Shown here one piece after another: positions 37,001 through 50,361 of a DNA stretch of 64,000 nucleotides. Each line of letters starts with the position of its first letter. Position 1 is the first letter of the stretch. The DNA comes from Komagataeibacter xylinus. GTDB taxonomy: Bacteria; Pseudomonadota; Alphaproteobacteria; Acetobacterales; Acetobacteraceae. The notes under the pieces were generated by a model, which worked only from the letters and a program-made list of their open reading frames with translations, was not told the DNA's origin and searched no databases. Location: positions 714,001-778,000 of the forward strand of contig NZ_CP041348.1 in the NCBI RefSeq assembly GCF_009834365.1, in the 5' to 3' direction. Made by a program: the position numbers and the translations under genes.

Positions 37001-37825
37001 GTGGAGCGTCAGCCACTCGCGGTAATAGGGGGCGGCCTGCGGGTCGGTGCCCATCCATTCCAGCGTTTTGCGCCATGACTGCGTCGCCTCGTCACGAATG
37101 AAATCCGGCGTGGCGGGAGACGTGGCGAGTGTGCGCATGTCCTCGATCGCATCCGCGCGGGTGCCCGGACGGTAGCTCAGGGCCTGCGCCAGCGCCATGC
37201 GGATTTCAAGATCATGCGGCAGCAGGCTGCCCAGCGCGTGCAGGCGCTGCGTAGCCTCCCCCCAGCCCAGTATCGAGCCGGACAGCACACGGTCATATTC
37301 GAGCTCCGCTTCCGGTAACGGGTGGCCGCCATGATAAATGCCACGATAGGCCAGCGTGGCCTGCAAATGCTTGCCCGCATCCGCCAGGGCGCGTGCTCGC
37401 GACAGCGCCACCGGGTCAACCACCCCCTGCCCGATCCAGCCCTGCAGGGCGTCAACCTGTGCCTGCGCTCCGCCCTGCGCCTGCAGGGCCTGCAAGGTGG
37501 CGCGCGCGCCCGCAAGGTCATTGGCATGCACCTGCACGGCACCCAGCATCAGGCGGGCTTCCAGATTGTCCGGCTCGATGCGTAGCGCGCGCTCAAGCGC
37601 GTGCCGGGCATGGGTGTCATCGCCGTGATGGATCCAGAACGCGCCTTCTTCTATCTGCGCGTTGAGAATGCCCTCGGCATAGCGCACGGGCGCCTGCGCC
37701 CAGGCAGGCGCGCACAGGCTGAACAGCCCGGCCAGGACAAGGCCGCCCCATGCCCCTGCCCCCGCACCGCGACAGGCCGGAAGCTGGATGCGACAGGGCG
37801 CGAAAAGCCGATCATGCATGGTCAC
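34025..37825 (-). CDS. bcsC: cellulose synthase outer-membrane protein BcsC
   Basis: 1266 aa. Signal peptide (LVLAGLFSLCAPAWAQA), then about 850 residues of TPR-like helices (e.g. HALERALRIEPDNLEARLMLG) forming the periplasmic scaffold, and a C-terminal BCSC barrel domain of about 330 residues (QVWGGVTRNRGHGQLEWAQPG, GYSRSGSWDEVHGMLMLHYAP). It guides the glucan chain across the outer membrane. Its start overlaps the bcsAB stop by 4 bp, as expected for coupled translation. Confidence 0.93.
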   Translation of the reverse strand: MTMHDRLFAPCRIQLPACRGAGAGAWGGLVLAGLFSLCAPAWAQAPVRYAEGILNAQIEEGAFWIHHGDDTHARHALERALRIEPDNLEARLMLGAVQVHANDLAGARATLQALQAQGGAQAQVDALQGWIGQGVVDPVALSRARALADAGKHLQATLAYRGIYHGGHPLPEAELEYDRVLSGSILGWGEATQRLHALGSLLPHDLEIRMALAQALSYRPGTRADAIEDMRTLATSPATPDFIRDEATQSWRKTLEWMGTDPQAAPYYREWLTLHPDDTDMASRLKVQEANRALAEHLALVGTGYHALAKGDLDQAESDFQTSMQGMPPRPEALEGLGLVAQRRGDVKAARAFLEQARALTPTDEGIRTALAGLDAPGGDPQLAQLWALVGRHQYEEAWAMLAAVEKNHGQIVDTVRVRAIIEQSRHRLAQAEAGWRAVLRMAPGDMAAIAALSDVLIEEGRLHEAKGWVARLRAAHYPDVTILEAGLLGAMAETEPDPGKRAVLLEQAVRDAPRNGWLRLHLAQLWLAQGQATRARALMTPPCNPVPATDENLQACFSFALLDQDMPRADALLARLPRADITTAMADGVAQVRLWHQIRMLPADDAQAIPLLAAMPVLPDPEGTQARLVVDALLRRHAPVAVAQGVLQRALAGSAGHVSVNQSLSYAGLFMQIDDPVAAQHVLDGLPTIIQGRPLTPRQARDLSDMQRSLTIAQADRDDLDGHPDAARRLLDPLVAQNPNDAGLLLARGRVDAARRLPGSAVTYDRRALAQRPDDRMGQAALARDSLASGDERAARDMARTLQATHPHWGDTWEIQAEIDGLTGHDRRRLHDVQRARVLDCTPRPDEDDTTGHGTRIDAGCMPQRVQATDEWPDISTNFVPGMGAGMPEIYHYDPHLTPVQALDRQADYLSRTLGPQADGNLEIRDRSGQPGLGHMTVVNIPMTAIMSFSSTQHQFAFSVMPSVLMSGDPLASGTTAQQYGSVATNGVRPGFHVPAAVAGVALSAHYQWRWLAADVGSTPLGFTTTNVLGGIELTPHLTQNLTLRLTGERRAVTDSLLAYSGARDPGTGQVWGGVTRNRGHGQLEWAQPGYNLYAGGGYAVMQGTHTVANHESEAGAGGAALVWHRHDAHHVRLGLDLVYFGYKRNTYFFTWGQGGYFSPHAFMAALVPVTYDGHAGRWTWLFKGEAGYQHYTEHATAMFPMGEGGMAAREQYAGQSTGGLAGNVLARAVYQLTPSLRLGAEGGYSRSGSWDEVHGMLMLHYAPG

Positions 37826-40800
37826 AGGTCGCCCGTCAGATCATTGTTGAGAATGCGCCGCCTGCTGCGCGCGCCGAGCACCGCCATGGCCCATGAGGTG
37901 CCGCACAGCGCGGCCAGAACTCCCAGCCCGCAAAGCAGCAGCGGGTGGCCGCCCAGATACCAGTCCGGCAGCATCCAAGCGGGCATGTTGCCTACGGTAT
38001 AGAGTCCGCCCGTGCGATAATTATCCAGCCGCGCCCCGTGGCGGATCACCATATCGCCCTGAAAGCGCTGCATCAGGGCCGGGTCGCGCAGGTCACGCAC
38101 CATGGCGGGCAATGCAGCAGGCGCGCCGCCGAGCACGGCCACGACGGAACGGTGCGCAACAAAGGGCGACTGCGCCGCCACCACCGCCCCTTCGGTCAGG
38201 TTATATGTCGGTGCAGGCGCGCCGGGGTGCATCATCCGCATGCGCAGGCGTTGCAACAGCGAGGGCCCGCGCACGTAACCGGCCCGCGCCAGCGCCGCCT
38301 GTCCGTTGCCCAGCCCGTCAAGCGTGGAAAAAATCAGGATATCGCCAGTAATCGTATCATCAACCGGCATGTCGGTGGTCCGCACGCTCACGCCGGTGGC
38401 GGGATAGCGGTTGATGGCACCTGCAAGGCCCATCATGTCCACAAAGGCAGCGACCGTGTCGGGAGCGGGATGGGGCGGCAGCAGTACGGTCGTTTCCGAC
38501 AGGTCGGCCATGCGCGAAAACGGAAAGGCTGAAGAGGCAAACAGCGCCACATCAGGCAGCACCGCGAAATGCCGCGACTTGGAAAAATCAATGGTGGAGG
38601 ACGGGTCGAGTTCAACCACATCGGGCGAGGCTGCAGCCTCGGCCTGCGTCATGTGCCGGGGATACACATTAAAATACAACCGCAGTTCGTTCTGCTGCCC
38701 CATTCTCCATACCGGCAGTTCCAGGTCATGTTCCACCGGCGCGCCCGCCACACGGAACGGGTTGAGCGACCACGGCACCAGCGGATAGACATGCAGGAAT
38801 GTGTCGTTCAGCATAACGCTGACATGGGATTTCTTCCGCTCCAGCACACCGCCTTCCGGCGCGATGAGCCGCAGCCGCGCCATGAACGGCCGCGAGCGCC
38901 ATGAACGCAGGTCTGGCGGCAGCGACAGCTTCACCCTGAGCATGCCCGATGTCAGGCCATGTGTGCGCAGGTCCGCCGTCGAGACCAGTTCGCGCAGGGG
39001 CACGGGCTGGTCGGTGCGCACAAGACCCGGTGCATCATAGGGCTGGCGGGCAGGAGGGTGCACGACGGGTGCCGCCGCAAAAGACCCCGCTGCATCATGT
39101 TCCGCGCCCAGCACCAGAGCCCTTGCTGCTGTTGTGACATCGGCCATGCTGCGCCCGGTCACGACGAGGATCGTGCCGAAACCATCCTGCGGGTTGGGCA
39201 TGACCGCGAGTTCCGGCCCCGGCGGCACGGCACCCCACGGCCCCGGCTGGTTGGGCGCGATGAGCACCGCATTGCCCTGCGCGGGCAGGACGGGCGTCAC
39301 GTTGAAACTGATCCTGCGATCCTGTCCGTCTGCCCCGAACCATGAGGCCACCATGCCCGCAGCCGCCAGCACGCCGGGGTCCGACACATCAGGCAGGGCA
39401 AAGGTGACCACCGGCATTTGTGCCGCATCAGGGTCCAGCACCGGATAGGGCAGCGCCGAGAGCAGCCGATGGGGCATGAGGCTGACCGTGGTCAGCGCAA
39501 GAGTGGAGTGCGGGGTAATCGTGATCGAGGCATCCGCGGCACTCACCCGCGCTGTATCGGGCGCGGGGGCACGGGCACCCGGCCCGCAGGCCGCAACACC
39601 GGCAGTGCCGGTGGCCGGGCGCATGAACAGGCGGAAATTGATCCTGTTGCGCGTGTCAAAAAACAACGGACTGACCGGCAGGCTGACGGGACCGAACGCG
39701 CCATCAGCCGCCGGGCAGATGACGCCGATATCCTGATTGTTGACGCTGACGGCCACCGCAACCGGCCCCGCCACATGCCCCATATGTGCGGTGCCCGAAA
39801 GAGTCAGCGTGCCGCCTGTAATGATGACATCGCGCCCGACCCTGACGCCAAGCCCATGCAGCGGCGCATCGGCACGCAGCACCATGTCGTCTTCCTGCCC
39901 GAGCTCAGCAAGGCTGCGCGTGTACGTGTGCGGCTGGTGCGAGACCCGGTCCACATCAACCATGGTCATGCGCGCATCATCCACCGCGGCAACGGACTCG
40001 CCCGCGGCCTCCACCGGCGCCATGTCAGACAGTGCATCGGGCGTAGCCCGCGCGCTACCAGCCAGGCCGCACAGTAACAGGGCCGCCATTGCCAGCGGCA
40101 GGCCGGATGCACCAGCACCTGACCTGTGCGGCGGCAAAATAACCAGCTGCCGGGCAGGCAGCTTTTCGTCCGGTTCGGCATCAGGCGGTGCGGCGGGCGA
40201 GGGAGATGCCTGCATCTGCGCGCGCGGATAGGGCCGGAACAGCCCGCAGATGCTGACCAGCAGCAGGTAAAGACTGTGCAGGGGCCGGTCAGGCGGGAAA
40301 TCGGACCACTGCGCCCAGGCATCATCACGACCGAACACAAGCCCTACAACCTGCTTTTCGGTTGCAAGGTCCGGAATGACCCACGCAACATGCGCACGCC
40401 CCTCGTGCCGGGCAATGCAGATGGCGCGCAGCGTAAGCGGGCCAGCAGCAAGGGTACCGTGCAGGCGCAACTCATCGCCCACGGCAAGGGGCAGTGTGGG
40501 CGGCAGGTCAAGCAGACACCCGCCCATCGACACATCTACCGTGCGGCACGCAACACCCTGCGCGCCACCTGCTGCCACGGTAAAGGGAATGCTGGCCGCA
40601 ATGCGGTGGTTGCGGCGGCGCTGGCGGGTTTCACGCGCGGCCGCGACACCCCCAAGCACGATGATCAGGCTGAACAGCACCCAGACCGAATTGACGGCCA
40701 TTGCGCGGAACACCACCGTTTCATGATAATGGGCGATCGCGGCCCAGATGCCGCTTACCAGTCCCACTGCCAGTATCACGGCCATGATCACGCCAGGATA

Positions 40801-42279
40801 GGAGGCCCGCCAGTCAAAGCGCTCGCGGTCGAGCAGGCCGCCCTTGTCAGTTACGTTGAACTTACCCTTGTGCGGCGCCACCACGGTCACGAACGTCATG
40901 CGCACCAGAAAGGGTGCCAGCATGGATTCGTAGATCTCGCTCCAGAACGAATAGCGCCACCGCCCCTGCAGCCGCGACATGGTCATGGTGGTATGAAACA
41001 GATGCGGCAGGGCATAGACCGCGAGTTCATAGGGCGAGGCCGCGATCATGGTCACGCCCAGGAACAGATAGGCCAGCGGGGCCATCAGGAACATGATCCG
41101 TGGTATGGCGAAGAAGTAATTCGTTGCCGCCGCCATGTAGCAGATGCGCTGCGTCAGGCGCAGGCCAGGGCCGCGCATGGGATTGTCGATCCGCAGCATC
41201 TGGATCATGCCGCGCGCCCAGCGCACGCGCTGCCCGACCTGCAGCAGGAGGGTTTCCGTCTCGAGGCCTGCTGCAAGCGGCTCGCGCAGATAGGCCGTGC
41301 CCCACCCCTTGCGCTGCATGCGCAGGGCAGTGTGGGCATCTTCCGTTACGGTTTCAGTGGCGAAGCCGTCGATGGAGGTGATGGCCTTGCGCCTCAGCAG
41401 GGCGCATGACCCGCAGAAGAAAGTGGCATTCCAGAAATCATTGCCATCCTGCAAAAGGCCATAGAACAGGTTGCTCTCGGGAGGCACCTGCATGCCCCGG
41501 CTCATGTTGCGGCGGAACGGATCGGGGGAGTAGAAGTGATGCGGTGTCTGCAGCAGCGCGAGGTTGGGGTCGGCGACCATCCACCCCACGGTCTTCTTGA
41601 GGAAGCTGCGCACGGGCACATGGTCGCAGTCAAAGATCGCGATAATGTCGCCCGTTGTCACCTTGATGGCATGGTTGAGGTTGCCAGCTTTGGCGTGGGC
41701 ATTTTCTGCGCGGTTGATGTAGCCTGCCCCGACCTGCTCGGCAAAATCACGGAACGACCGCCGCCGCCCGTCATCAAGAATATAAACGTTCAGCTTGTCT
41801 GCCGGCCAGTCCATGGACAGGCAGCCCAGCACCGTGGTGCGGACGATCGACATATCCTCGTTATAGGTCGGCACATAGACATCAATGACCGGCCAGGTGC
41901 TTTCATCCTCCGGCAGCGGGTGAATCTGCCGTCGCAGGGGCCAGGCGAGCTGAAAATACGTAAAGCCCACCCGACAGGTGGTATAGATTTCACCAATTGC
42001 CAGTGCCAGCACCAGGATTGTCTGCAACACGCCATCCAGATCAAGCGTGGAAGTAAAGCGCCACACCAGATAGCGCCCGGATACCACAATGGACAGCACC
42101 ATCAGGAAACAGCGCGACCGGCGTTCATCATGTCGGCGAACAAGGAAGAACAGGAGCGCGCCTCCTACCGCCACGAAAAACTGGTGGTCGGGGGAGAGAT
42201 AGGTCAGGCAGACCACCGCAAGGAGTATGGCGAATAACGGGCCAGAGACGAGAGGAGATTTTAAAACGCGCCAGATCAT
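37822..42279 (-). CDS. bcsAB: fused cellulose synthase BcsAB
   Basis: 1485 aa, catalytic BcsA fused to periplasmic BcsB. The GT2 core keeps all UDP-glucose residues: DDG (169-171), DCD (217-219), TED (312-314) and QRVRW (350-354). The gating loop FNVTDK is at 474-479. The PilZ domain has RRNHR (555-559) and DVSMGG (582-587), so activation by c-di-GMP is expected. From about 740 the BcsB part begins with a hydrophobic segment, carries the carbohydrate-binding domains and ends in one membrane helix. A two-gene layout without bcsD, bcsX, bcsY, bcsZ or ccpAx corresponds to the third cellulose operon of Komagataeibacter. Confidence 0.95.
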   Translation of the reverse strand: MIWRVLKSPLVSGPLFAILLAVVCLTYLSPDHQFFVAVGGALLFFLVRRHDERRSRCFLMVLSIVVSGRYLVWRFTSTLDLDGVLQTILVLALAIGEIYTTCRVGFTYFQLAWPLRRQIHPLPEDESTWPVIDVYVPTYNEDMSIVRTTVLGCLSMDWPADKLNVYILDDGRRRSFRDFAEQVGAGYINRAENAHAKAGNLNHAIKVTTGDIIAIFDCDHVPVRSFLKKTVGWMVADPNLALLQTPHHFYSPDPFRRNMSRGMQVPPESNLFYGLLQDGNDFWNATFFCGSCALLRRKAITSIDGFATETVTEDAHTALRMQRKGWGTAYLREPLAAGLETETLLLQVGQRVRWARGMIQMLRIDNPMRGPGLRLTQRICYMAAATNYFFAIPRIMFLMAPLAYLFLGVTMIAASPYELAVYALPHLFHTTMTMSRLQGRWRYSFWSEIYESMLAPFLVRMTFVTVVAPHKGKFNVTDKGGLLDRERFDWRASYPGVIMAVILAVGLVSGIWAAIAHYHETVVFRAMAVNSVWVLFSLIIVLGGVAAARETRQRRRNHRIAASIPFTVAAGGAQGVACRTVDVSMGGCLLDLPPTLPLAVGDELRLHGTLAAGPLTLRAICIARHEGRAHVAWVIPDLATEKQVVGLVFGRDDAWAQWSDFPPDRPLHSLYLLLVSICGLFRPYPRAQMQASPSPAAPPDAEPDEKLPARQLVILPPHRSGAGASGLPLAMAALLLCGLAGSARATPDALSDMAPVEAAGESVAAVDDARMTMVDVDRVSHQPHTYTRSLAELGQEDDMVLRADAPLHGLGVRVGRDVIITGGTLTLSGTAHMGHVAGPVAVAVSVNNQDIGVICPAADGAFGPVSLPVSPLFFDTRNRINFRLFMRPATGTAGVAACGPGARAPAPDTARVSAADASITITPHSTLALTTVSLMPHRLLSALPYPVLDPDAAQMPVVTFALPDVSDPGVLAAAGMVASWFGADGQDRRISFNVTPVLPAQGNAVLIAPNQPGPWGAVPPGPELAVMPNPQDGFGTILVVTGRSMADVTTAARALVLGAEHDAAGSFAAAPVVHPPARQPYDAPGLVRTDQPVPLRELVSTADLRTHGLTSGMLRVKLSLPPDLRSWRSRPFMARLRLIAPEGGVLERKKSHVSVMLNDTFLHVYPLVPWSLNPFRVAGAPVEHDLELPVWRMGQQNELRLYFNVYPRHMTQAEAAASPDVVELDPSSTIDFSKSRHFAVLPDVALFASSAFPFSRMADLSETTVLLPPHPAPDTVAAFVDMMGLAGAINRYPATGVSVRTTDMPVDDTITGDILIFSTLDGLGNGQAALARAGYVRGPSLLQRLRMRMMHPGAPAPTYNLTEGAVVAAQSPFVAHRSVVAVLGGAPAALPAMVRDLRDPALMQRFQGDMVIRHGARLDNYRTGGLYTVGNMPAWMLPDWYLGGHPLLLCGLGVLAALCGTSWAMAVLGARSRRRILNNDLTGDL

Positions 42280-42858
42280 AGAAACTCGTAACTGTACCGT
42301 GCTGGCCTTGAGCAGGCTATTTAAAAGGGTGGATCAGGACCGTATTGGGGGATGGTCCTTACGGTTTTACGTCCATGACTGTCTGTTCAGGCAAGCAGGT
42401 TTCCTGCCATTACATGATGATTATTCATTAGAAATTTTTCTTTCCTGCAATGAAATCAACAGGTTATGAATATGTATTTTTTATACCAATTTGCCCTCCC
42501 GTTATATTGAAAATATAACCCTGTCAACGCCTGCCCCCATGGAATCAACATGACATCCCCGAAGCCCTAGGCATACAGGTCAAGGCTCACACGCCACCAG
42601 AAGAATACAAGGACCGTGCCCTGCGCCTGTCGCCACACCTGAGAAGGTACAAACGGTTCAGCAAGCAGTGCAATCAGCGCCTATATCTGAACGAATGTTT
42701 GAAGATGACCAAGACGGGCATTGTCAGGAGCTGCGGGACGAACAGCATGGCATGCGAGTAAGGACGCCATGCATGCACTGGGTTCATCAATCTGGAGCCT
42801 TGCTTATGGTGCCTCCACCAGAGCAGGGCTTTTTCATTGATGCTTTTTTATCCACGTC
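42280..42858. promoter_or_regulatory. upstream region of the bcs operon and degenerate DNA
   Basis: The first 260 bp are AT-rich and should hold the bcsAB promoter; GTTATATT-GAA-AATATAAC at 42501-42519 is an 8-bp perfect inverted repeat about 220 bp upstream of the start. The remaining 320 bp contain no supported gene and may be debris from insertion sequences. Confidence 0.4.
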
Positions 42859-43718
42859 TCAATTTTCATCATGAAAATCAGTCTTGACCCTGGCGTTCAT
42901 TAAAATATCAAACACCAGCCTTTTATGCTCGACCGATGGCATCCAGTCATCGAGACTGACGTGAGAAGCATTCCTGCCGACAAGGATGGATTTCACCACC
43001 ATATCCGCGACAGCCCGCCACTCCTTGAGCCTTGCCCACAGGTTTTCGACCAGATGCCAGTGTCTGTAAGCCCATTTGGGACAGGCGACTTCTGGATCAT
43101 TCTTCCTTGGCGGGATGACAGGGCGAGATCCACGGTTCCAAAGATCTTCACGAAATTTATGTGAGGCATACCCACGATCGCAGACGACATAGATTGGTGG
43201 GTATGGCAGAGCGTCAAGCAGGGCGTAGGCACACGGTAATTCATGTGCCTGTCCGGGTGCCAGCGTGAAGGACAGTGCCCTGCCATGACTGTCCGCAGCT
43301 ACGCAGACCTTGGTGCCAAATCCTCCACGTGAGCGGCCAAGAGCCTCACGATCCTTTCGGCGTTCTCTGTGCCCCCTTTTTTAGCCGCTCCGGCCGCCTT
43401 ATGATGGGCACGGATTGTCGTGCCATCAAGAAAGACCATGCCGAGGTCTTGATCCCTGTCTTTGACCTTTTCAAAGAGGCGCTGCCACACACCGAGCTTC
43501 GACCATCGAATGAACAACTGTGCTGCAATCCACCAGGGACCAAACTCTGATGGCAAGGCACGCCACTTCGCGCCGTTCTGATGGCGCCAGAAAATCGCGG
43601 ATATCGTCCGTCGAAGGTTCTTTGGTGGGGTCTTGCCCTTCGGACGGACTTCCTCGATCAAAGGCTCCCAGACGGACCATGCGGTATCGGAAAAGACAGA
43701 CTGCATCATGCTCATCAT
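42859..43718 (-). pseudogene. IS427-like transposase in two frames, degenerate C-terminus
   Basis: Frame A (43299-43718) has WSVWEPLIEEVRPKGKTPPK and the first catalytic aspartate in VFLDGTTIRAHHKAAGAAKK. A run A6G5 (complement of 43372-43382) is a classic -1 slip site into frame B: LGRSRGGFGTKVCVAADSHG, then YVVCDRGYASHKF with the second aspartate and LVENLWARLKEWRAVA. After that, the expected TRYEKT...ending is replaced by unrelated residues to the stop at 42859, and the expected ending reappears weakly in another frame. A frameshift or truncation is likely. Confidence 0.65.
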
Positions 43719-43763
43719 AAACAGCTATGCAATCCGTTCCGTCATTCAAGACCTAACAGGCCC
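42859..43763 (-). mobile_element. IS5-family (IS427-like) element, partial or degenerate
   Basis: The right end (complement) reads GGGCCTGTTAGGTCTTGAAT, a good terminal repeat start, flanked by TA. I cannot find the matching left repeat, so the left boundary is set at the stop of the transposase frame. Probably truncated. Confidence 0.55.
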
Positions 43764-43911
43764 TAATCACCCGTTCCCTCTGCTGATGGAATATTCAGCG
43801 ATGCCATGCCAGAGATAGTTATCTGGCGATGTTTCTGGAATTGTCTTCATCATACAAAACACAGAGGCCTATGTCGCTTTCCAGTTTTTCCAGTAAAATT
43901 AATTCCAATTA

Positions 43912-44181
43912 TTATTTTATTCTGCATATTATTCTTCTTTCTGTCTTCTGAGACTTCATGATGGACACGTTCCGCATTGAGACAGAAATACCGATGCATT
44001 CGAAGAACTCACGTGCCAACGTGGATTTCCCGTTACCCACAGGACCAATGAGTAGGCTTTTGAACGCAAAAACCCCGCCATTGGGGGCGGGTTTTTGTAT
44101 TTTATTAGGTGATGTAAGTCTGGTTGCGGGGACACGCAGCCCCCGATACCGACAGTCTTTGATTTTTTCTATATAAATCAA
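43912..44181 (-). CDS. small ORF with P-loop-like motif, doubtful
   Basis: 89 aa. It holds LLIGPVGNGKSTLAREF, which matches the Walker A pattern GxxxxGK(S/T), but the protein is far too short for an ATPase and has no Walker B. The middle (KIQKPAPNGGVFAF) is encoded by the terminator hairpin at 44068-44096. The pattern RGLRVPATRLTSPNK resembles short phage-derived Ash-type reading frames as I remember them. It may be a phage remnant or not a gene at all. Confidence 0.25.
   Translation of the reverse strand: MIYIEKIKDCRYRGLRVPATRLTSPNKIQKPAPNGGVFAFKSLLIGPVGNGKSTLAREFFECIGISVSMRNVSIMKSQKTERRIICRIK
44068..44099 (+). terminator. rho-independent terminator-like hairpin
   Basis: AAAAACCCCGCC, loop, GGGGGCGGGTTTTTG: G+C-rich stem with A/T flanks that can also work on the minus strand, where it lies past the RES gene stop at 44222. 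Confidence 0.6.
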
Positions 44182-44221
44182 AAATAAAATTCATACAGTC
44201 TTTCGATAGATGACAAATACG

Positions 44222-45253
44222 CTAATCCTCTTTGACCGGTTTTACATCAACGGCCACTTTAGAAACATTGTAGCGTGCAACCGAACCACAAGAAGCCTTC
44301 TCGGGATCGAAAAGCGCCAGATTGAATCCGTCACTCACAGAACTACGATAAATGACCCCATCAAAGCCGCTTTTCTTAATGAACTCACATAAGTATTGAC
44401 TAGGAATATAATCAATAGCGGCACCGTGAGGTAGCACCGGTCGGGTCAGTTCATCGCCAAGGCGCTCTAGAAACGGGAGAGCAGCTCGTAACCGGCCGAT
44501 ATCAGTAGTGTCGGTCAAAATAAATGGCGAAACAAGCTTACGTGGATTACGCAAATCGACAGCTTTAATACTTGGAATGTCAAACTGAGCCACACAAGCA
44601 TTTTCGCCGGTATGTGGTCGGACTTCTGCCACTGCAGTGCCTGGTTGCGATCCAAGATAAAGATATGGGATACCCGCAGGATTGGCACGACCGTGCGAGG
44701 CCCTACGACGTGGCGGCGCGCCCATCTGGTCGATCGGATAATCTTCGTCGTCGACACAGATACGGGAGCGAAACCAGCGGTGCGGCAAGTTCGACGCAAT
44801 CAGCAACGCCAAATGTCCTCGCAACTGATCAAGGTCGATCTCCACGTCGAGAAACCAACGATTCCTATACATCATTTCATCACGAAGTTTTTCCCACTGC
44901 TCTAAACCCTTGCTAATGTAACTCTCGGAAGGAGCAAAATATTGACGGACTATTTCGCCATCATCCAGAATTTCACTGAGCAATTCTTTAGCATGTGCCA
45001 CGTCCATTGCTGGATGGTCAAAGAGATTCCAATCATCCTTCAACCACTCAACCAAAAGCTTGCCATCATCATTACGTTCATAGATGTTAATGAGCGCCCC
45101 AAAAACATCCGCAAGCTGCGATGGCTCGACTAAAGGTACATTTAGCGTGCCACAAAAACTACATGTACCCTGCTTAGATTTGAGTGACGGTATTATGTTG
45201 CCACGAAGCCCAACGTCACCAAAACACTCAGGGCAACAGTATCTTTTAGCCAT
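44222..45253 (-). CDS. RES-domain protein with N-terminal zinc ribbon / HEPN-RES-type domain
   Basis: 343 aa. The N-terminus has paired cysteines (YCCPECFGD and GTCSFCGT), a likely zinc ribbon, then a helical region (about 45-150). The RES domain follows at about 155-335: GRANPAGIPYLYLGSQPGTA and VAEVRP give the conserved Arg, Tyr and Glu, and VIYRSSVSDGFNLALFDPE the conserved Ser. Characterised RES toxins break down NAD+ and stop growth. No Xre antitoxin lies beside it. The gene follows the sce7725-type gene after 7 bp, so it belongs to the same operon, probably as the toxic effector of a three-gene system. Confidence 0.75.
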   Translation of the reverse strand: MAKRYCCPECFGDVGLRGNIIPSLKSKQGTCSFCGTLNVPLVEPSQLADVFGALINIYERNDDGKLLVEWLKDDWNLFDHPAMDVAHAKELLSEILDDGEIVRQYFAPSESYISKGLEQWEKLRDEMMYRNRWFLDVEIDLDQLRGHLALLIASNLPHRWFRSRICVDDEDYPIDQMGAPPRRRASHGRANPAGIPYLYLGSQPGTAVAEVRPHTGENACVAQFDIPSIKAVDLRNPRKLVSPFILTDTTDIGRLRAALPFLERLGDELTRPVLPHGAAIDYIPSQYLCEFIKKSGFDGVIYRSSVSDGFNLALFDPEKASCGSVARYNVSKVAVDVKPVKED

Positions 45254-45260
45254 ACGCGCC

Positions 45261-46196
45261 TCAACCGAGATAGGCTGCTAAGGTCTCGATATGATGTTTC
45301 ATTGAGAGTTTTTTTACATAACCCAGCCCTGGAAAATGACCTTTCGCATGTAGTTCTCGAAACTCCTTAATCGCACTAGTTTCGAGTAGCTTTGATCTCT
45401 TCGTATTAAGTTTCTTGATTAGCTTATCAAGTGCTTGCCCGAATTTTCCGGCAGGATCTGTTGGAGTATCTTTAGTATCTGACACAAAATGATAAATATA
45501 CATCATATCATCTTGGTCAGGATCTATAAAAGTCAAATGGAGAGCAACAGCATACGCAGGGCCTCCGCTTTCACTATAACTATCACCAACCGTCAAAAAA
45601 TCTCCGAAGCCAGACATACCAAGATCTGAATATGTCACATGCAAATCAGAAAATTCCTCAATTTCTGGGTAATCAGCATTCCTCTGACGATTAAAACCAT
45701 CCTGCACAAGAACGCGATCACTTGAAACAAAATGCTTTCGATAAAGAAGTTTAGCATGATCTTCAATGAAGACATTCTTGATATTCTTCATTTCACTTGC
45801 CAGATCCGCAACCAGCAATTTAGGTGCACTAAAGCCAGCATGAATAAATACTGGATGATGATCAGCGTGAGATGAATAACACGTAAGGACATCTTCTACA
45901 TTCATGTCACTACGCAACAGGATTCCTGCAACGATAGATTCATGACAGGAATAACCATCTTTGAGCAATTGACTAATATTAGCACCATCTTCTTGATGGT
46001 CACCGTGATGAGGATTTACAATAACGATTGCACGACCACCGGCAGAGCAAATTGCTTTGAGGGTTTTTTCAAGTCCCCCTAACGCCTCTCTAACGGGTTC
46101 AATGATCGGAGTGAAATTGTTATCAGCCATTAAAGTGGCCATTTCACGAATAGTAATCAGTTCGAATTGTTTTCCACGAAAATAAGGATAATACAT
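45261..46196 (-). CDS. sce7725-family protein
   Basis: 311 aa from the ATG at 46196 (MYYPYFRGKQFELITIREMA), the usual start of this family; GGAG lies about 11 bp upstream. NNFTPIIEPVREALGGLEKTL and RAIVIVNPHHGDH suggest alternating strands and helices as in a barrel, related in outline to T4 beta-protein-like families. Biochemical function is not known to me. It follows the sce7726-type gene by 7 bp, and these two families occur as a pair in other genomes. Confidence 0.7.
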   Translation of the reverse strand: MYYPYFRGKQFELITIREMATLMADNNFTPIIEPVREALGGLEKTLKAICSAGGRAIVIVNPHHGDHQEDGANISQLLKDGYSCHESIVAGILLRSDMNVEDVLTCYSSHADHHPVFIHAGFSAPKLLVADLASEMKNIKNVFIEDHAKLLYRKHFVSSDRVLVQDGFNRQRNADYPEIEEFSDLHVTYSDLGMSGFGDFLTVGDSYSESGGPAYAVALHLTFIDPDQDDMMYIYHFVSDTKDTPTDPAGKFGQALDKLIKKLNTKRSKLLETSAIKEFRELHAKGHFPGLGYVKKLSMKHHIETLAAYLG

Positions 46197-46203
46197 GCGG
46201 TCT

Positions 46204-47088
46204 TCAGCTCCATGCCATTGCCGCATCCAGCGGACTTCTGACGGCCTCTACCAACCGATCATGATCGGTCCGGCGAACGGGAATTGATAGGGCAGCAGCT
46301 TGCAACGATTGCGGCAACTGCTCGACAAGTTCACTCAGTGGCGCAAGATTACGGGTCCGCTTGAGAACACGTACCATTTCGGCATGCACACTCACTGGAT
46401 CGAGATCAATGAAAAGCTCTCGTAAAACAGCATGACGTCGAGTGTTAGGAACATCTGGCACAGTACGTCCTAACGCTTTAATAATCGAAGTCGCTTCAGC
46501 AGCCCGAAGTGACTCGAATACAGATGCAGGGCAAACCCGTTCAGGGCTATCCAGAGCTTCCCGCACCGTTGATATCTGGTAGCGTTTGGATAAGCACATA
46601 ACACCAACGTCTGACGGAACAGTAGATAAGACGCCGTTTACATGACTTTCACTCGCGATAACGTTAACTTTCGCGAATACACGTTTATAATTTTCGACTT
46701 GGTTAGCAAGACGGACCAAACTATCCCGTTCGGATTTTATCTCATAAACGGTCGCTGTACCGTTCAAAACAACAAGGTCAGCTTTGCATGATCCCGCCCT
46801 GAATTCATTGAGCATCGATGCAGTACGCAGTGAGTGGGTGCCCATCAGTATCTTGTGACTGATTGCCGTCCGATAGACATACTCGTCACGCTTCCCCGCG
46901 ACTTTAAGTGTGTCAAAAGCCGCATCGAAAACGTCACCAATGCTTGCCTGCAAGCCACAACGAGCCTCAAGATCAGTTTGATCTACGAGCCGACGGAATA
47001 GACCGGACCGCCCCTTCTTCGCCAGTTCCCGGAAAACAGCGGCGGAGAATAGGCGTGTAAACGCAGACAGTTGTACTGAGCTGTAGAT
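46204..47088 (-). CDS. sce7726-family protein, putative PD-(D/E)XK nuclease
   Basis: At least 249 aa from the TTG at 46953, but the reading frame is open and family-like for 45 more codons: LSAFTRLFSAAVFRELAKKG and then RSGLFRRLVDQ. The only well-placed ribosome binding site (GGGAGGA) lies before an ATC codon at 47086-47088; a CTG lies at 47068-47070. The core KADLVVLNGTATVYEIKSER gives D...ExK, the metal site of PD-(D/E)XK nucleases, and MLNEFRAGSCKADLV is the most conserved stretch. It heads the three-gene cassette and lies just behind the conjugation genes. The boundary given includes the extension. Confidence 0.65.
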   Translation of the reverse strand: MYSSVQLSAFTRLFSAAVFRELAKKGRSGLFRRLVDQTDLEARCGLQASIGDVFDAAFDTLKVAGKRDEYVYRTAISHKILMGTHSLRTASMLNEFRAGSCKADLVVLNGTATVYEIKSERDSLVRLANQVENYKRVFAKVNVIASESHVNGVLSTVPSDVGVMCLSKRYQISTVREALDSPERVCPASVFESLRAAEATSIIKALGRTVPDVPNTRRHAVLRELFIDLDPVSVHAEMVRVLKRTRNLAPLSELVEQLPQSLQAAALSIPVRRTDHDRLVEAVRSPLDAAMAWS

Positions 47089-47262
47089 GGCCGTTCCTCC
47101 CGTCCATTGAGCAGTTCACTTTATGACCTTACGATTCGAGTATTTTTACCAAAAAACTCTTACCAAGGAATCCAGAAAATTGGCGGGGCAGACCAGACAA
47201 ACACTCCGATGACACCAGATCACACTCTTCACCTTGATTGTAACCAATCAGCGTCCCTTGCG
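47089..47262. other. junction between conjugation operon and cargo cassette
   Basis: 170 bp between the DUF2274 gene and the sce7726 gene, same strand. It should contain the cassette promoter or read-through from the trb operon. No hairpin terminator is seen. Confidence 0.35.
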
Positions 47263-47484
47263 CTAGAGCTTCGCTCTTCGCGCCTTGGCGAAACCCCGAT
47301 CGGTAGCGATAAACCGGGTCAGCATGGGCGCGATGAGACGCACGGGATCGATGGGCACCAGCCCGGTTCCACGACCCAAAATTTCAGCATAGGCGACAAG
47401 ATCACGATGCAGGGTGGCCGGCAACTCCAGCGTGACTTTCACGGGCTTGTCATCCTCGATCGGACCGAGCTTCAGCTTCGTCAT
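47263..47484 (-). CDS. DUF2274 protein, conjugation operon
   Basis: 73 aa from the ATG at 47484, which overlaps the trbI stop by 4 bp. Begins MTKLKLGPIEDDKPVKVTLE and has a ribbon-helix-helix look (LPATLHRDLVAYAEILGR). Families of this type regularly close trb operons of Tn4371-like elements. C-terminus ATDRGFAKARRAK. A copy of the same ending occurs in the remnant near 62600. Confidence 0.75.
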   Translation of the reverse strand: MTKLKLGPIEDDKPVKVTLELPATLHRDLVAYAEILGRGTGLVPIDPVRLIAPMLTRFIATDRGFAKARRAKL

Positions 47485-48674
47485 GGGTGGATTTCCTCCT
47501 GTGTCCAAGGCTTTAGAACCAGATCGCGGTTCAGAATGAGCGTGAACGGCAGGCCGGGCCTGTCGGTCAGCGTCGGCTGAATATCCAGACTGCGGTCGAT
47601 CAGACGGTTACCGACCATGGAGAAACCATTGCTGGCCCCTGAACGGATGGCCTGCATCAGGTTGTTCTCGTTCCATGACGTGCCGGCTTCGGAACCCACG
47701 CTGAGAAGAGTCGTCACGAGGGCAGCCTTGAAAAGCTGGCCCCAATGATTGTTCACCTCATCGGATAGACCGGACTGCCCGATGGCGTCGCCACCGAGCA
47801 GCTTTTCCAGCACCAGGCTCTCCCCGTTCGGGTAGATCAGCCGGGTCCAGATGATCTGGGTCCGCTGCTGTCCGAAGGAAACACTGCTGTTATAGGCCCC
47901 GAACAGGGTGCTGCCCTGCGGGACCAGCAGATAACGACCGGTCGGGCTGTCATAGACGTTCTGGGTGACATGACCGACGATCTGGCCGGGCAGATCGGAG
48001 CTGATTTTCGTATTCAATGCTCCGGCGATGACGGTCCCTGCCTGAAGGATATAAGGGGACGCGGGCGGCATAATCCGGTCCGGGCTGACCGTCGCACGGT
48101 CCGGCTTCCCCGCCAGAAAGGTACGATTGACAGCCTGCTGGTCGGTTCCTGCCGATGATGCCCGCACTCCAGGAGCGGCCGCCATCACCGGCACCGCCTG
48201 GGCGCTCTGACCCTCTCGTACCTCGACCTGCGCGAAGAGCCTGCTGGTGCGCGCGGCTTCGATCTCCTGGTCGCCGCGACGATTCCCCATGCCGGGAACC
48301 GGCCCCGCACGTCCCTGCCGCTGCGCATTGAGGATCGGCCCGCCCAGATCACCGGGCAGAGGCTGCCCCAGCTTCGGTACATTGGTATAGTCGCTGGGCA
48401 AAGCCGACAGCCCGTCGGCCGAGGCCCGCGCGTCGGTATCCTGTGCTGCCTGAACCGGCCCTTTTGGCGTGTTGCCTTGCAGCGCGTAACCCAGCGCGAG
48501 ACCGATGGCGAGCATCCCAGCCGCCCCCAGGGTCCAGATGACGGGGCGCGACAGCTTTACGACCGGCGGACGCTGTGCGCGCAGCCGCAGATCGGGTGAC
48601 GGTGCTGGTCCCGCTGCGCTCCCGTTGCCGGTAGCGCCCCCGTCCTCATCCGGGCGTTCTTCCGCGCTGCTCAT
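47481..48674 (-). CDS. trbI: conjugal transfer protein TrbI (VirB10-like)
   Basis: 397 aa. Short N-terminal cytoplasmic part, one membrane helix (PVIWTLGAAGMLAIGLALGYAL), a Pro/Gln-rich linker and the C-terminal VirB10 domain: LQAGTVIAGALNTKISSDLPGQ, VTQNVYDSPTGRYLLVPQGS and RTQIIWTRLIYPNGESLVLE. It spans inner and outer membranes in the type IV secretion core complex. ATGA overlap with trbG. Confidence 0.93.
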   Translation of the reverse strand: MSSAEERPDEDGGATGNGSAAGPAPSPDLRLRAQRPPVVKLSRPVIWTLGAAGMLAIGLALGYALQGNTPKGPVQAAQDTDARASADGLSALPSDYTNVPKLGQPLPGDLGGPILNAQRQGRAGPVPGMGNRRGDQEIEAARTSRLFAQVEVREGQSAQAVPVMAAAPGVRASSAGTDQQAVNRTFLAGKPDRATVSPDRIMPPASPYILQAGTVIAGALNTKISSDLPGQIVGHVTQNVYDSPTGRYLLVPQGSTLFGAYNSSVSFGQQRTQIIWTRLIYPNGESLVLEKLLGGDAIGQSGLSDEVNNHWGQLFKAALVTTLLSVGSEAGTSWNENNLMQAIRSGASNGFSMVGNRLIDRSLDIQPTLTDRPGLPFTLILNRDLVLKPWTQEEIHP

Positions 48675-49672
48675 GACTTTCTGCCGTCCGTGCGCACGAT
48701 CCGCACACGCTGCTCGGAATGCTTATCACCCAGGCGTAATTCGGCAGCGGCGAACAGGCGATCGACGATCATCCAGTTCTGTCGCACCCGGTAATTGACC
48801 AGTTCCGGCCCTCCATCGGCCCCAAGCACAAAAAGCGGCGGCAGTTCCCCTTGCCCTATGCCAGCCGGAAAGGCGATATAGACCTTCCGCCCGTCATCAA
48901 AAGCCCGGCTGGGAAGCCAGGGTGATGTCTCGCCTTTCACCGGCTGGATGGCATAGCGGAAATTCAGGGCGTCGAGTTTCAAGCCCGTATCTACTGATGC
49001 CGCCTCGTCGGCATCGCTGTCCTGCCGGTGCAGGGCAATCAGATCATCCTCAGGGTAGTCCCAGGACACCGAGGCCATGTAGGTGGCTGGTGTGGAGCGC
49101 AGTTCGGCCAGATACGTCCGCCGATCCGTATTGACGATCAGGTTGGTAGTCAGATCCGGCCGCGTCGGCTTGACCAGGATATGGATGCGTTTGGTCGCCC
49201 CTGCCCCGCTTTCGGTGTCGCCAATGATCCAGCGCACCGTATCACCGGCAGCAACCGGCCCGGTGCCGACCAGCTTTTCGCCCTGCTGGAGCATGATGTC
49301 AGTGATTTCGCCGGGCGAGGTATAGACCTGATAGAGGGCACCGGGAGAATAAGGATAGACCTGCACCGCATTGATGAAGCCAGCACGCGTAGGTTGAATT
49401 CGGGCCGCCAGATTGGCCTGTGTCACGCGCGCTGCGGGGTCGGCGACTTCGGGAGCCGTATGGACCGCGCGTCGTGACGGCAGCGGCTTGAGCTGGCCCG
49501 GCAGGGGAAGTGGCTGCGGGACTTCGACGATCTGTACCGGTTTCGGTGGGTCCGGCAGGCGCATGGCCTGAACAGCGTCATCGTACCGGATGACAGGCGG
49601 ATGGTAATGCTGCGCGCATCCGGCCAGGGGCAGGACAAGCAACGGGAGAAAACGAAGAGCGCGACGGATCAT
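48671..49672 (-). CDS. trbG: conjugal transfer protein TrbG (VirB9-like)
   Basis: 333 aa. Lipoprotein-like signal FLPLLVLPLAGCAQHY. The VirB9 domain contains IHILVKPTRPDLTTNLIVNT and ALNFRYAIQPVKGE, and it ends in NYRVRQNWMIVDRLFAAAEL. Forms the outer-membrane part of the secretion core with TrbI. Coupled to trbF by a 4-bp overlap. Confidence 0.93.
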   Translation of the reverse strand: MIRRALRFLPLLVLPLAGCAQHYHPPVIRYDDAVQAMRLPDPPKPVQIVEVPQPLPLPGQLKPLPSRRAVHTAPEVADPAARVTQANLAARIQPTRAGFINAVQVYPYSPGALYQVYTSPGEITDIMLQQGEKLVGTGPVAAGDTVRWIIGDTESGAGATKRIHILVKPTRPDLTTNLIVNTDRRTYLAELRSTPATYMASVSWDYPEDDLIALHRQDSDADEAASVDTGLKLDALNFRYAIQPVKGETSPWLPSRAFDDGRKVYIAFPAGIGQGELPPLFVLGADGGPELVNYRVRQNWMIVDRLFAAAELRLGDKHSEQRVRIVRTDGRKS

Positions 49673-50361
49673 TGGCCAAGCTCCTTCGACCAGTTGATGG
49701 CGGAGACGTATATGCCGAGGGGATTTTTCCGCAGATGATCCGCATCGCGGGGCGTCCGCAGCACGATGGACACGATGGCGGTCCAGCGTTCGGTGCCGGT
49801 AAACGCTCCATCGCGGTAATGACGCTCGGTCCAGGCGACACGGAAACTGCCAGACGAGGCGCGGATGACCGAGGCAATGTCCACCTCGACCTGCTCCCGT
49901 CCGATCCGCGAAAACGGATCGTTGAGGCGGGCATAATCATTAAGCGCCTGCGCGCCCGACGTGGTGGTGAAATCATAGGCGCGCAGCCAGTTATGCCGGA
50001 CCACCACCGCATCTGATGACAGACCACGGACATCGCCGATAAACTGCGCCAGATACCAGGCAATCTGCGGATCGGTCGGTGTGTAACCCGCTGTCGCAGG
50101 CATCACGACCTGCGCCTGCCCCAGTCGATCGACCTGCACCACCCATGGCACGACGGTGCCATGCGCGGACTGCCAGACCAACCCGGCACCAAGGCCGGCG
50201 GACAGAAACAGTGACCCGAACGCCATCAGACGCCAATTGCGGGCCTGCACACGGGCGGAGCCGATGCGCTCGTCCCAGATCTGCGCTGCTTTCTGGTATG
50301 GGGTTACGGGCTCGGGCGTGGTCCCGTAACGGCTGGTGGAGCGACGGAACATCGTCCTCAT
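49669..50361 (-). CDS. trbF: conjugal transfer protein TrbF (VirB8-like)
   Basis: 230 aa. Short cytoplasmic N-terminus, one membrane helix (WRLMAFGSLFLSAGLGAGL), then the periplasmic VirB8 domain with VPWVVQVDRLGQAQVVMPAT, YTPTDPQIAWYLAQFIGDVR and FRVAWTERHYRDG. Assembly platform of the secretion channel. Overlaps trbL by 4 bp. Confidence 0.93.
   Translation of the reverse strand: MRTMFRRSTSRYGTTPEPVTPYQKAAQIWDERIGSARVQARNWRLMAFGSLFLSAGLGAGLVWQSAHGTVVPWVVQVDRLGQAQVVMPATAGYTPTDPQIAWYLAQFIGDVRGLSSDAVVVRHNWLRAYDFTTTSGAQALNDYARLNDPFSRIGREQVEVDIASVIRASSGSFRVAWTERHYRDGAFTGTERWTAIVSIVLRTPRDADHLRKNPLGIYVSAINWSKELGQ

What the first reader, a model, noticed from the sequence alone, without database searches (positions are those of the whole stretch)
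44222..47088. Three-gene cassette sce7726 - sce7725 - RES: candidate undescribed defence system
Seen: three minus-strand genes 7 bp apart, immediately behind the trb operon of a conjugative element. The first has a D...ExK nuclease-like core, the second belongs to the sce7725 family with no known function, the third has zinc-ribbon cysteines and a RES domain with Arg, Tyr, Glu and Ser in place. Known: RES toxins deplete NAD+ and normally come with an Xre antitoxin; none is here. Inference: a sensor/nuclease pair controls a NAD+-depleting effector, an abortive-infection logic carried as ICE cargo.
Basis: partly seen in the sequence, partly recalled or inferred. Interest (0 to 1): 0.78.

Follow-up and report, generated by a model that had tools for sequence, protein, structure and literature searches.

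The report
Nuclease–barrel–RES defence cassette on ICE
Three genes that travel together on mobile DNA in very different bacteria look like an anti-phage suicide system: a nuclease and a barrel-shaped partner, both related to parts of a known phage-P4 defence system, but joined to an enzyme predicted to destroy the cell's NAD+.

Summary
The cassette is real: sce7726 (46204-~47088), sce7725 (45261-46196) and a zinc-ribbon/RES protein (44222-45253), minus strand, 7 bp apart, behind the trb genes. It is one unit: of the 80 sce7725 loci kept from a species-genome scan (best 80 of 234), 80 have RES and 79 have sce7726 in the same order and strand; blastn homology to the window ends at the cassette in all 157 matches (95 loci). 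All 4 full-length RES orthologues found in 398 Pseudomonadota genomes (own included) lie in the cassette.

P4 gop-beta-cII is a published anti-phage system, so this looks like its effector-swapped sibling, Gop replaced by a predicted NAD+ phosphorylase. Eight of 18 E. coli loci were read; all lie beside defence-type genes (Kiwa-like, Pycsar-like, BREX, restriction).

Phage resistance, NAD+ loss and what restrains RES are untested; sequence-level evidence for sce7725-Beta homology is weak. The window's sce7726 lacks a canonical start where homologues begin. New variant of a known kind.

The parts
46204..47088 (-). sce7726-family protein: PD-(D/E)XK nuclease domain (about residues 64-180, MmcB-like in the viral library) with helical N- and C-terminal parts; homologue of satellite P4 cII. 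First canonical start is TTG at 46953; homology continues to about 47088-47094 without a canonical start codon
46777..46779 (-). Asp104, first catalytic-type acid of the nuclease core
   Evidence: invariant in 44 sequences; coordinates
46735..46743 (-). Glu116-x-Lys118, ExK motif of the nuclease core
   Evidence: invariant in 44 sequences; coordinates
45261..46196 (-). sce7725-family protein: predicted TIM barrel with the Beta fold; proposed restraint/sensor partner of the effector (start as in homologues; ORF listed from ATG 46226)
   Evidence: NF033831 3.3e-109; AF2 pLDDT 89.9, pTM 0.90; only BFVD match at E <= 0.001 is a Gordonia phage Powerball protein, gp33, which is PF14350
44222..45253 (-). 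Effector: zinc ribbon (C7, C10, C31, C34), HEPN/RES-NTD1-like helical region (about 26-136, weak), RES NAD+ phosphorylase domain (181-321)
   Evidence: PF08808 1.8e-19; PF18870 E 0.021, below cut-off, and 6e-5 and 1e-4 in two orthologues, also below cut-off; invariant residues
44321..44764 (-). span holding the conserved RES active-site-type residues R164, R189, Y199, E210, S304, N311
   Evidence: compared by motif with NatT R23, R82, Y93, S184, N193 (PMC11535050, passages)
47263..47508 (-). DUF2274 gene, last gene of the trb operon before the cassette (boundary, not part of it)
   Evidence: PF10038 2.5e-33

Best explanation
An abortive-infection-type anti-phage cassette carried as cargo of a conjugative element, and an effector-swapped sibling of the P4 gop-beta-cII system. 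Shown by computation: three co-inherited genes; sce7726 has a PD-(D/E)XK nuclease fold with an intact D/ExK core and is the cII family; sce7725 is a TIM barrel whose best viral fold match is a Beta protein; the third protein carries a RES domain with the conserved residues. Inferred: in uninfected cells sce7725 (as Beta does for Gop in P4) keeps RES inactive. The sce7726-sce7725 pair, whose nuclease domain touches nucleic acid, senses or is disturbed by infection. RES is then released and phosphorolyses NAD+, stopping the cell before phage is made. The sensing step and which partner restrains RES are the least certain parts.
For: Conserved unit: RES in 80 of 80 and sce7726 in 79 of 80 sce7725 loci kept (best 80 of 234), order and strand kept in 79; also in Moraxella (sce7725 34%) and an unannotated gut contig (sce7725 30%, RES 27%). 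Reverse: the 4 full-length RES orthologues in 398 Pseudomonadota genomes, own included, are all in the cassette. Co-inheritance: distance-matrix r 0.92-0.94 over 84 loci (0.80-0.81 without five divergent ones; best of 500 permutations per pair 0.36). Discrete cargo: 157 HSPs in 95 of 197 loci, none beyond 44240-47100. P4 link: cII is sce7726 family; the 14 of 398 genomes with sce7726 over cut-off have sce7725+RES (4) or a convergent Beta gene (10); sce7725's single BFVD match at E <= 0.001 is Powerball gp33 = PF14350, convergent with gp32 = sce7726 family; global profile alignment 48% against 0.2-0.3% for reversed controls. gop-beta-cII protects against lambda and P1, and Gop is toxic without beta (PMC9122126, passages). 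Neighbourhood: 8 of 18 E. coli loci read, 8 of 8 beside defence-type genes.
Against: No phage or NAD+ data. sce7725 gives no PF14350 hit; its HMM does not find gp33 (E 0.11-0.14) and its profile against gp33 alone gives 0.3-0.5%; the local profile probability against Beta is 7-9%, no better than sce7725 against sce7726 in the same run (8%). P4's cII is convergent, here all genes are co-directional. Of five further genomes with sub-cut-off sce7726 matches two were looked at and showed neither partner; three of 13 Beta loci have no sce7726 detected. The conserved charged residues of sce7725 would also suit an enzyme. The window's sce7726 lacks a canonical start, so this copy may be weakly expressed or decaying. 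In 5 of 80 loci a gene is split into two or more frames, and one E. coli RES is annotated frameshifted. The E. coli loci are partly near-identical. The general neighbour scan shows only a modest excess (203 against 91 PADLOC families).
Confidence: 0.6

Rival explanations
1. Enzymatic partner: sce7725 is not a passive antitoxin but a TIM-barrel enzyme that makes or removes a small molecule (for example a nucleotide signal, or the RES product), and RES is gated by that molecule.
For: Barrel with many invariant polar residues (R17, E43, N71, D209, E219, H230, H246, K305, K306, H311, H312, 51 sequences); structural neighbours are mostly enzymes such as aldolases, glycoside hydrolases and reductases; Beta proteins keep acids and a His at aligned places.
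Confidence: 0.3
2. Toxin-antitoxin addiction module that stabilises the conjugative element (RES toxin, sce7725/sce7726 antitoxin), without a role against phage.
For: Carried behind trb genes here and on plasmids or mobile elements elsewhere; RES toxins coupled to an HTH antitoxin are described (PMC9503650, passages).
Against: Not a two-gene module; includes a conserved nuclease; the P4 relative protects against phage; E. coli copies lie with defence-type genes. Addiction and defence are not exclusive.
Confidence: 0.2
3. Two-layer defence: sce7726 with sce7725 degrades incoming DNA directly, and RES is only a back-up suicide arm that fires when restriction fails.
Against: No modification partner that would protect self DNA was seen; the RES gene is present in all 80 close loci, so it is not optional there.
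Confidence: 0.25
4. Non-defence cargo: a metabolic or repair module (MmcB-like nuclease plus NAD+-using enzyme).
For: Viral matches of sce7726 include proteins named MmcB-like DNA repair protein; the closest solved structure, 3dnx, is of unknown function; RES activity uses NAD+.
Against: Sporadic distribution (4 of 398 Pseudomonadota genomes; 2 of 200 of the family; own included in both), variable flanks, defence-type neighbours.
Confidence: 0.07

Closest known systems
gop-beta-cII anti-phage system of satellite P4 (Rousset et al. 2022, PMC9122126, passages seen; Ghisotti et al. 1990 only as cited there)
   Same: cII is the sce7726 family (31% identity over the nuclease core); sce7725 has a Beta-like fold; one effector gene next to the pair; carried by mobile elements.
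   Different: Gop (133 aa, two hydrophobic N-terminal stretches, no Pfam or NCBIfam match over cut-off) is replaced by a 343-aa RES protein; all genes co-directional instead of beta and cII convergent; sce7725 is outside PF14350 by sequence.
RES-Xre toxin-antitoxin modules (NatRT seen in PMC11535050, passages; ParST and MbcTA recalled)
   Same: RES domain with the conserved R, R, Y, S, N positions; predicted NAD+ phosphorolysis (for NatT).
   Different: No Xre-type antitoxin gene recognised; RES is C-terminal to a zinc ribbon and an NTD1-like region; two further conserved partner genes.
HEPN/RES-NTD1 + RES proteins with N-terminal zinc ribbon (Anantharaman et al. 2013, PMC3710099, passages)
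   Same: Same effector domain layout, noted there from sequence.
   Different: The passages seen do not mention sce7725 or sce7726 (no occurrence of sce7725 in that text); RES was then predicted to be an RNase.
MmcB-like / PD-(D/E)XK nucleases
   Same: sce7726 core fold and D/ExK residues.
   Different: Extra helical N- and C-terminal parts; conserved operon with a TIM barrel.
RES, sce7725 and sce7726 genes of an integrative mobilizable element in Pseudomonas aeruginosa PA_HN002 (PMC9394441, passage)
   Same: The same three families listed in one element.
   Different: Only listed; no system or function proposed in the passage.

Membership tests
gop-beta-cII system | cII / sce7726-family nuclease | tested here: met
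   NF033832 7.4e-55 window, 2.5e-44 P4 cII; BLASTP 3e-13
gop-beta-cII system | Beta protein recognised by PF14350 | tested here: not met
   no PF14350 hit for sce7725 at E 0.1, none in the window's genome at E 0.001
gop-beta-cII system | Beta-like fold | tested here: met
   one BFVD match at E <= 0.001, a PF14350 protein, E 3.9e-9, TM 0.65/0.57, rmsd 7.1; global profile 48% against 0.2-0.3% reversed; local profile not better than a control pair. P4 Beta itself was not modelled
gop-beta-cII system | Gop effector | tested here: not met
   third gene is PF08808 RES
gop-beta-cII system | beta and cII convergent | tested here: not met
   all genes on one strand
gop-beta-cII system | protection against phage | not testable with these tools
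   needs experiment
RES-Xre toxin-antitoxin | RES domain with catalytic residues | tested here: met
RES-Xre toxin-antitoxin | adjacent Xre/DUF2384-type antitoxin | tested here: not met
   by eye no such ORF among the 22 listed; no HTH hit among the seven of them scanned
RES family NAD+ phosphorylases | NAD+ phosphorolysis | not testable with these tools
   domain and residues only
PD-(D/E)XK nuclease superfamily (sce7726) | fold and D...ExK core | tested here: met
HEPN ribonuclease (N-terminal part of the RES protein) | conserved R-x4-6-H motif (motif recalled) | tested here: not met
   no invariant or nearly invariant His in A4; the weak match is to HEPN/RES-NTD1, a partner domain
anti-phage defence system | recurrent location among defence genes | tested here: met
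   8 of 8 E. coli loci read, of 18 found, partly the same element; only a modest excess in the wider neighbour scan

The most novel reading that the evidence does not exclude
sce7726 (cII) plus a Beta-type TIM barrel is a general, possibly enzymatic, infection-sensing core of a modular immune family, to which unrelated killers are coupled: Gop in P4-like satellites, RES NAD+ phosphorylase here, and an M78/IrrE-type peptidase in many Beta loci (ORF with an HExxH motif directly upstream in 9 of 13 Beta loci; one of these checked and matching PF06114).
Probability: 0.45. Interest if true: 0.8.

Novelty: new variant of a known kind. Interest (0 to 1): 0.62.

Why it matters
It gives a testable role to two families without a known function (sce7725, 5074 proteins at E <= 0.001; sce7726) by tying them to a published P4 defence system whose mechanism I found only suggested, not worked out, in the passages seen. 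It also predicts that the same kind of pair drives different killing proteins. If right, many genomes hold an unannotated NAD+-depleting defence operon of which PADLOC-DB 2.0 recognises one protein of three.

Tried and rejected
Canonical RES-Xre module: rejected, no antitoxin gene recognised and a different protein layout. HEPN RNase in the effector: rejected for lack of a conserved His. sce7725 as an ATPase ('ATP-binding protein' in some records): not supported; the model is a TIM barrel and Pfam gives nothing. Search of solved structures by sequence: none for RES; chance-like for sce7725; for sce7726 only a repeat region of CagY at E 0.0007, outside the nuclease core and taken as chance. PADLOC scan of 141 neighbours (two nearest genes per side, odd-numbered loci) against 138 control genes from 20 other stretches of some of the scanned genomes: 203 against 91 matching families; the tool does not give the number of proteins hit, both sets share mad3 and AriA matches, and the control held a DpdF gene, so this is weak evidence. 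The second neighbour batch (128 genes) was not scanned. Upstream genes beside the two other RES genes of the genome look HTH-like by eye but gave no Pfam hit, so the contrast 'other RES genes here have an antitoxin' is unsettled. Literature: searches for sce7726; sce7725; HEPN/RES domain/antiphage; gop/phage P4/satellite/anti-phage; gop-beta-cII; RES domain/NAD/phage defense; a gop/beta/PF14350/cII/RES combination; RES family NAD/phage/defense system; and Beta_protein/PF14350 (listings, of which at most the top 25 were shown) showed no paper describing an sce7726-sce7725-RES system; subscription journals and bioRxiv are mostly outside this library. The genome census rests on the best 80 of 234 relatives; the other 154 were not seen. 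In one search at most five candidates per genome were scored, so further RES orthologues could have been missed. L017 (same strain as L018) was left out of the distance comparison; four loci of the window's own genome were left out of the blastn comparison.
Full report
Observation. The window holds three minus-strand genes directly behind a trb conjugation operon (TrbI 47481-48674, DUF2274 47263-47508): an sce7726-family gene (NF033832 7e-55), an sce7725-family gene (NF033831 3e-109) and a RES gene (PF08808 1.8e-19). With homologue-based starts both gaps are 7 bp. One correction: the position where sce7726 homologues begin carries no ATG, GTG or TTG in this copy. The stop-bounded frame is open and homologous up to about 47088-47094 (ACG at 47094, ATC at 47088 with GGAGG seven bases upstream), and the first canonical start is TTG 46953. 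Of 93 loci surveyed, window included, 86 show the RLFS-type motif; 82 of these have a canonical start 9-17 codons before it, and the four without are the window, L020, L023 and L028.

The three genes are one unit. A profile scan of the species-genome collection with sce7725 found 234 relatives; the best 80 were kept. With locally iterated HMMs, RES is next to sce7725 in 80 of 80 and sce7726 in 79 of 80 (missing in L084), in the same order and on one strand in 79 of 80; in 5 of 80 a gene is split into two or more frames. By record titles the hosts include alpha-, beta- and gammaproteobacteria, Actinomycetota, Acidobacteria and Nitrospinae. Of 7 viral-collection contigs all have sce7726 and 5 have RES. 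Of 12 plasmid records with a match six were fetched: four hold the complete cassette, the Enterococcus one lacks RES and the Arthrobacter one is cut by an IS3. The layout persists in Moraxella (sce7725 34%) and in an unannotated gut contig (sce7725 30%, RES 27%). In the reverse direction, a search of 398 Pseudomonadota genomes with the full RES alignment gives four full-length orthologues (E < 1e-100; the window's own is one), all four in the cassette; 19 weaker matches are partial; at most five candidates per genome were scored. Pairwise distances of the three proteins correlate at 0.92-0.94 over 84 loci, 0.80-0.81 without five divergent loci; the best of 500 permutations per pair was 0.36. 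Of 157 blastn HSPs between window 40000-50000 and 95 of 197 fetched loci (loci of this stretch of the window's own genome left out), none lies beyond 44240-47100. So this is a discrete cargo cassette, not a shared island. It is patchy: 4 of 398 Pseudomonadota genomes and 2 of 200 in the window's family, own included in both, absent from the three other same-genus genomes listed; 18 of 5426 E. coli genomes.

Link to satellite P4. PADLOC's only hit in the cassette is sce7726 to 'cll', which I recalled as the gop-beta-cII entry. The P4 record agrees: its cII gene is annotated sce7726 family, scores 2.5e-44 to NF033832 and aligns to the window protein at 31% over the nuclease core. In 398 Pseudomonadota genomes 14 have sce7726 above cut-off: four with sce7725+RES, ten with a PF14350 Beta gene in convergent orientation, as in P4. 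Five more genomes have sce7726 matches below cut-off; two of these were fetched and showed neither partner. Of 13 Beta loci fetched, three have no sce7726 detected. sce7725 itself has no PF14350 hit. Its AlphaFold2 model (pLDDT 89.9, pTM 0.90) is a TIM barrel. Against the viral structure library exactly one match has E <= 0.001 (3.9e-9; next 6e-3): a 379-aa protein of Gordonia phage Powerball. A Beta protein finds the same phage in tblastn at gene 33 (E 4e-3); the 379-aa product of gene 33 scores 5.4e-37 to PF14350, and its convergent neighbour gp32 scores 7.8e-43 to the sce7726 family. That the library entry is gp33 rests on phage name and length. Sequence comparison is weak: the sce7725 HMM does not find gp33 (E 0.11-0.14), and local profile alignment to Beta gives 7-9%, no better than sce7725 against sce7726 in the same run (8%). 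In global mode it gives 48%, aligning the N-terminal YxP..R..E motif, the GDF/GDY motif and the C-terminal His region, where reversed controls give 0.2-0.3% and other pairs 0.0-0.2%. I therefore treat sce7725 as a structural relative of Beta, not as a PF14350 member.

Function. In P4, gop-beta-cII protects against lambda and P1, and Gop is toxic without beta (PMC9122126, passages). In E. coli, 8 of the 18 cassette loci were read. Six lie beside a four-gene block with TIR and caspase genes, annotated as Pycsar effector family and as adenylate/guanylate cyclase; four beside a KwaB-like gene; one beside a reverse transcriptase and a phosphoribosyltransferase-like gene; one beside AbiE and BREX genes; type I restriction genes, whole or partial, are near. 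Five show a relaxase gene, and searches show near-identical loci, so these are not eight independent events. The wider neighbour scan is only suggestive (203 against 91 PADLOC families in 141 and 138 genes). The most likely mechanism is abortive infection: sce7725 restrains RES, the nuclease pair responds to infection, RES consumes NAD+. The first part rests on analogy with Beta and Gop, the second is conjecture, the third on conserved residues and on published activity of other RES proteins.

Scale of certainty (my estimates): conserved cassette, about 0.99; defence role, about 0.8; RES as NAD+-consuming effector, about 0.85; sce7725 of Beta-like fold, about 0.8; sce7725 as the restraint on RES, about 0.5; sce7726 as sensor or trigger, about 0.4. 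The fold estimate was lowered from 0.85 on rechecking, because the local profile control did not favour Beta. Novelty: a variant of gop-beta-cII with another effector and gene order. I did not find it described in the nine literature searches listed under Tried and rejected; one paper lists the three families in one Pseudomonas element without comment (passage), and another lists sce7726 and sce7725 in a Leptospira island (passages).

Noticed in passing
window 47086-47094: sce7726 has ACG/ATC where 82 of 86 loci with the motif have an ATG/GTG/TTG nearby; three other loci (L020, L023, L028) share the lack. Rare start codon or decay, not settled.
   Followed up: partly
window 43912-44181 and 43299-43718: Just beyond RES: an 89-aa P-loop fragment (weak LmuB-like match, E 0.0013) and an ORF of an IS4/5-type transposase (PF13340); looks like a truncated neighbour gene.
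   Followed up: no
L142-L153, L129 (Beta loci): Beta genes have an ORF with an HExxH motif directly upstream in 9 of 13 loci; the one checked carries an M78/IrrE domain and a sub-cut-off HTH match. A third possible effector or regulator of the Beta module.
   Followed up: partly
L010 7306-8957, L013 6730-8378: In Enterococcus and a Listeria-phage-labelled contig sce7725 pairs with another ExK protein (229 aa) and there is no RES.
   Followed up: partly
L025, L031, L038, L060, L093; E. coli UTME-9 (L204): Cassettes with one gene split or interrupted, and one RES annotated frameshifted; sequencing errors not excluded.
   Followed up: no
window 34025-42279: Fused cellulose synthase A-B (1485 aa) and BcsC-like (1266 aa) genes lie beyond the cassette; suggests an acetic-acid-bacterium-like host (recalled, not tested).
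   Followed up: no
alignment A5 (neighbours of odd-numbered loci): GMP synthase domains (4 of 141) and IMP dehydrogenase (3 of 141) recur, and 4 phage-type integrases are in the same set; the guaA region may be an integration site of carrier elements. Adjacency was not checked.
   Followed up: no
E. coli ET210, L209 10998-18627: The cassette lies about 4 kb from P4-like satellite genes (polarity suppression, ogr/Delta-like).
   Followed up: no
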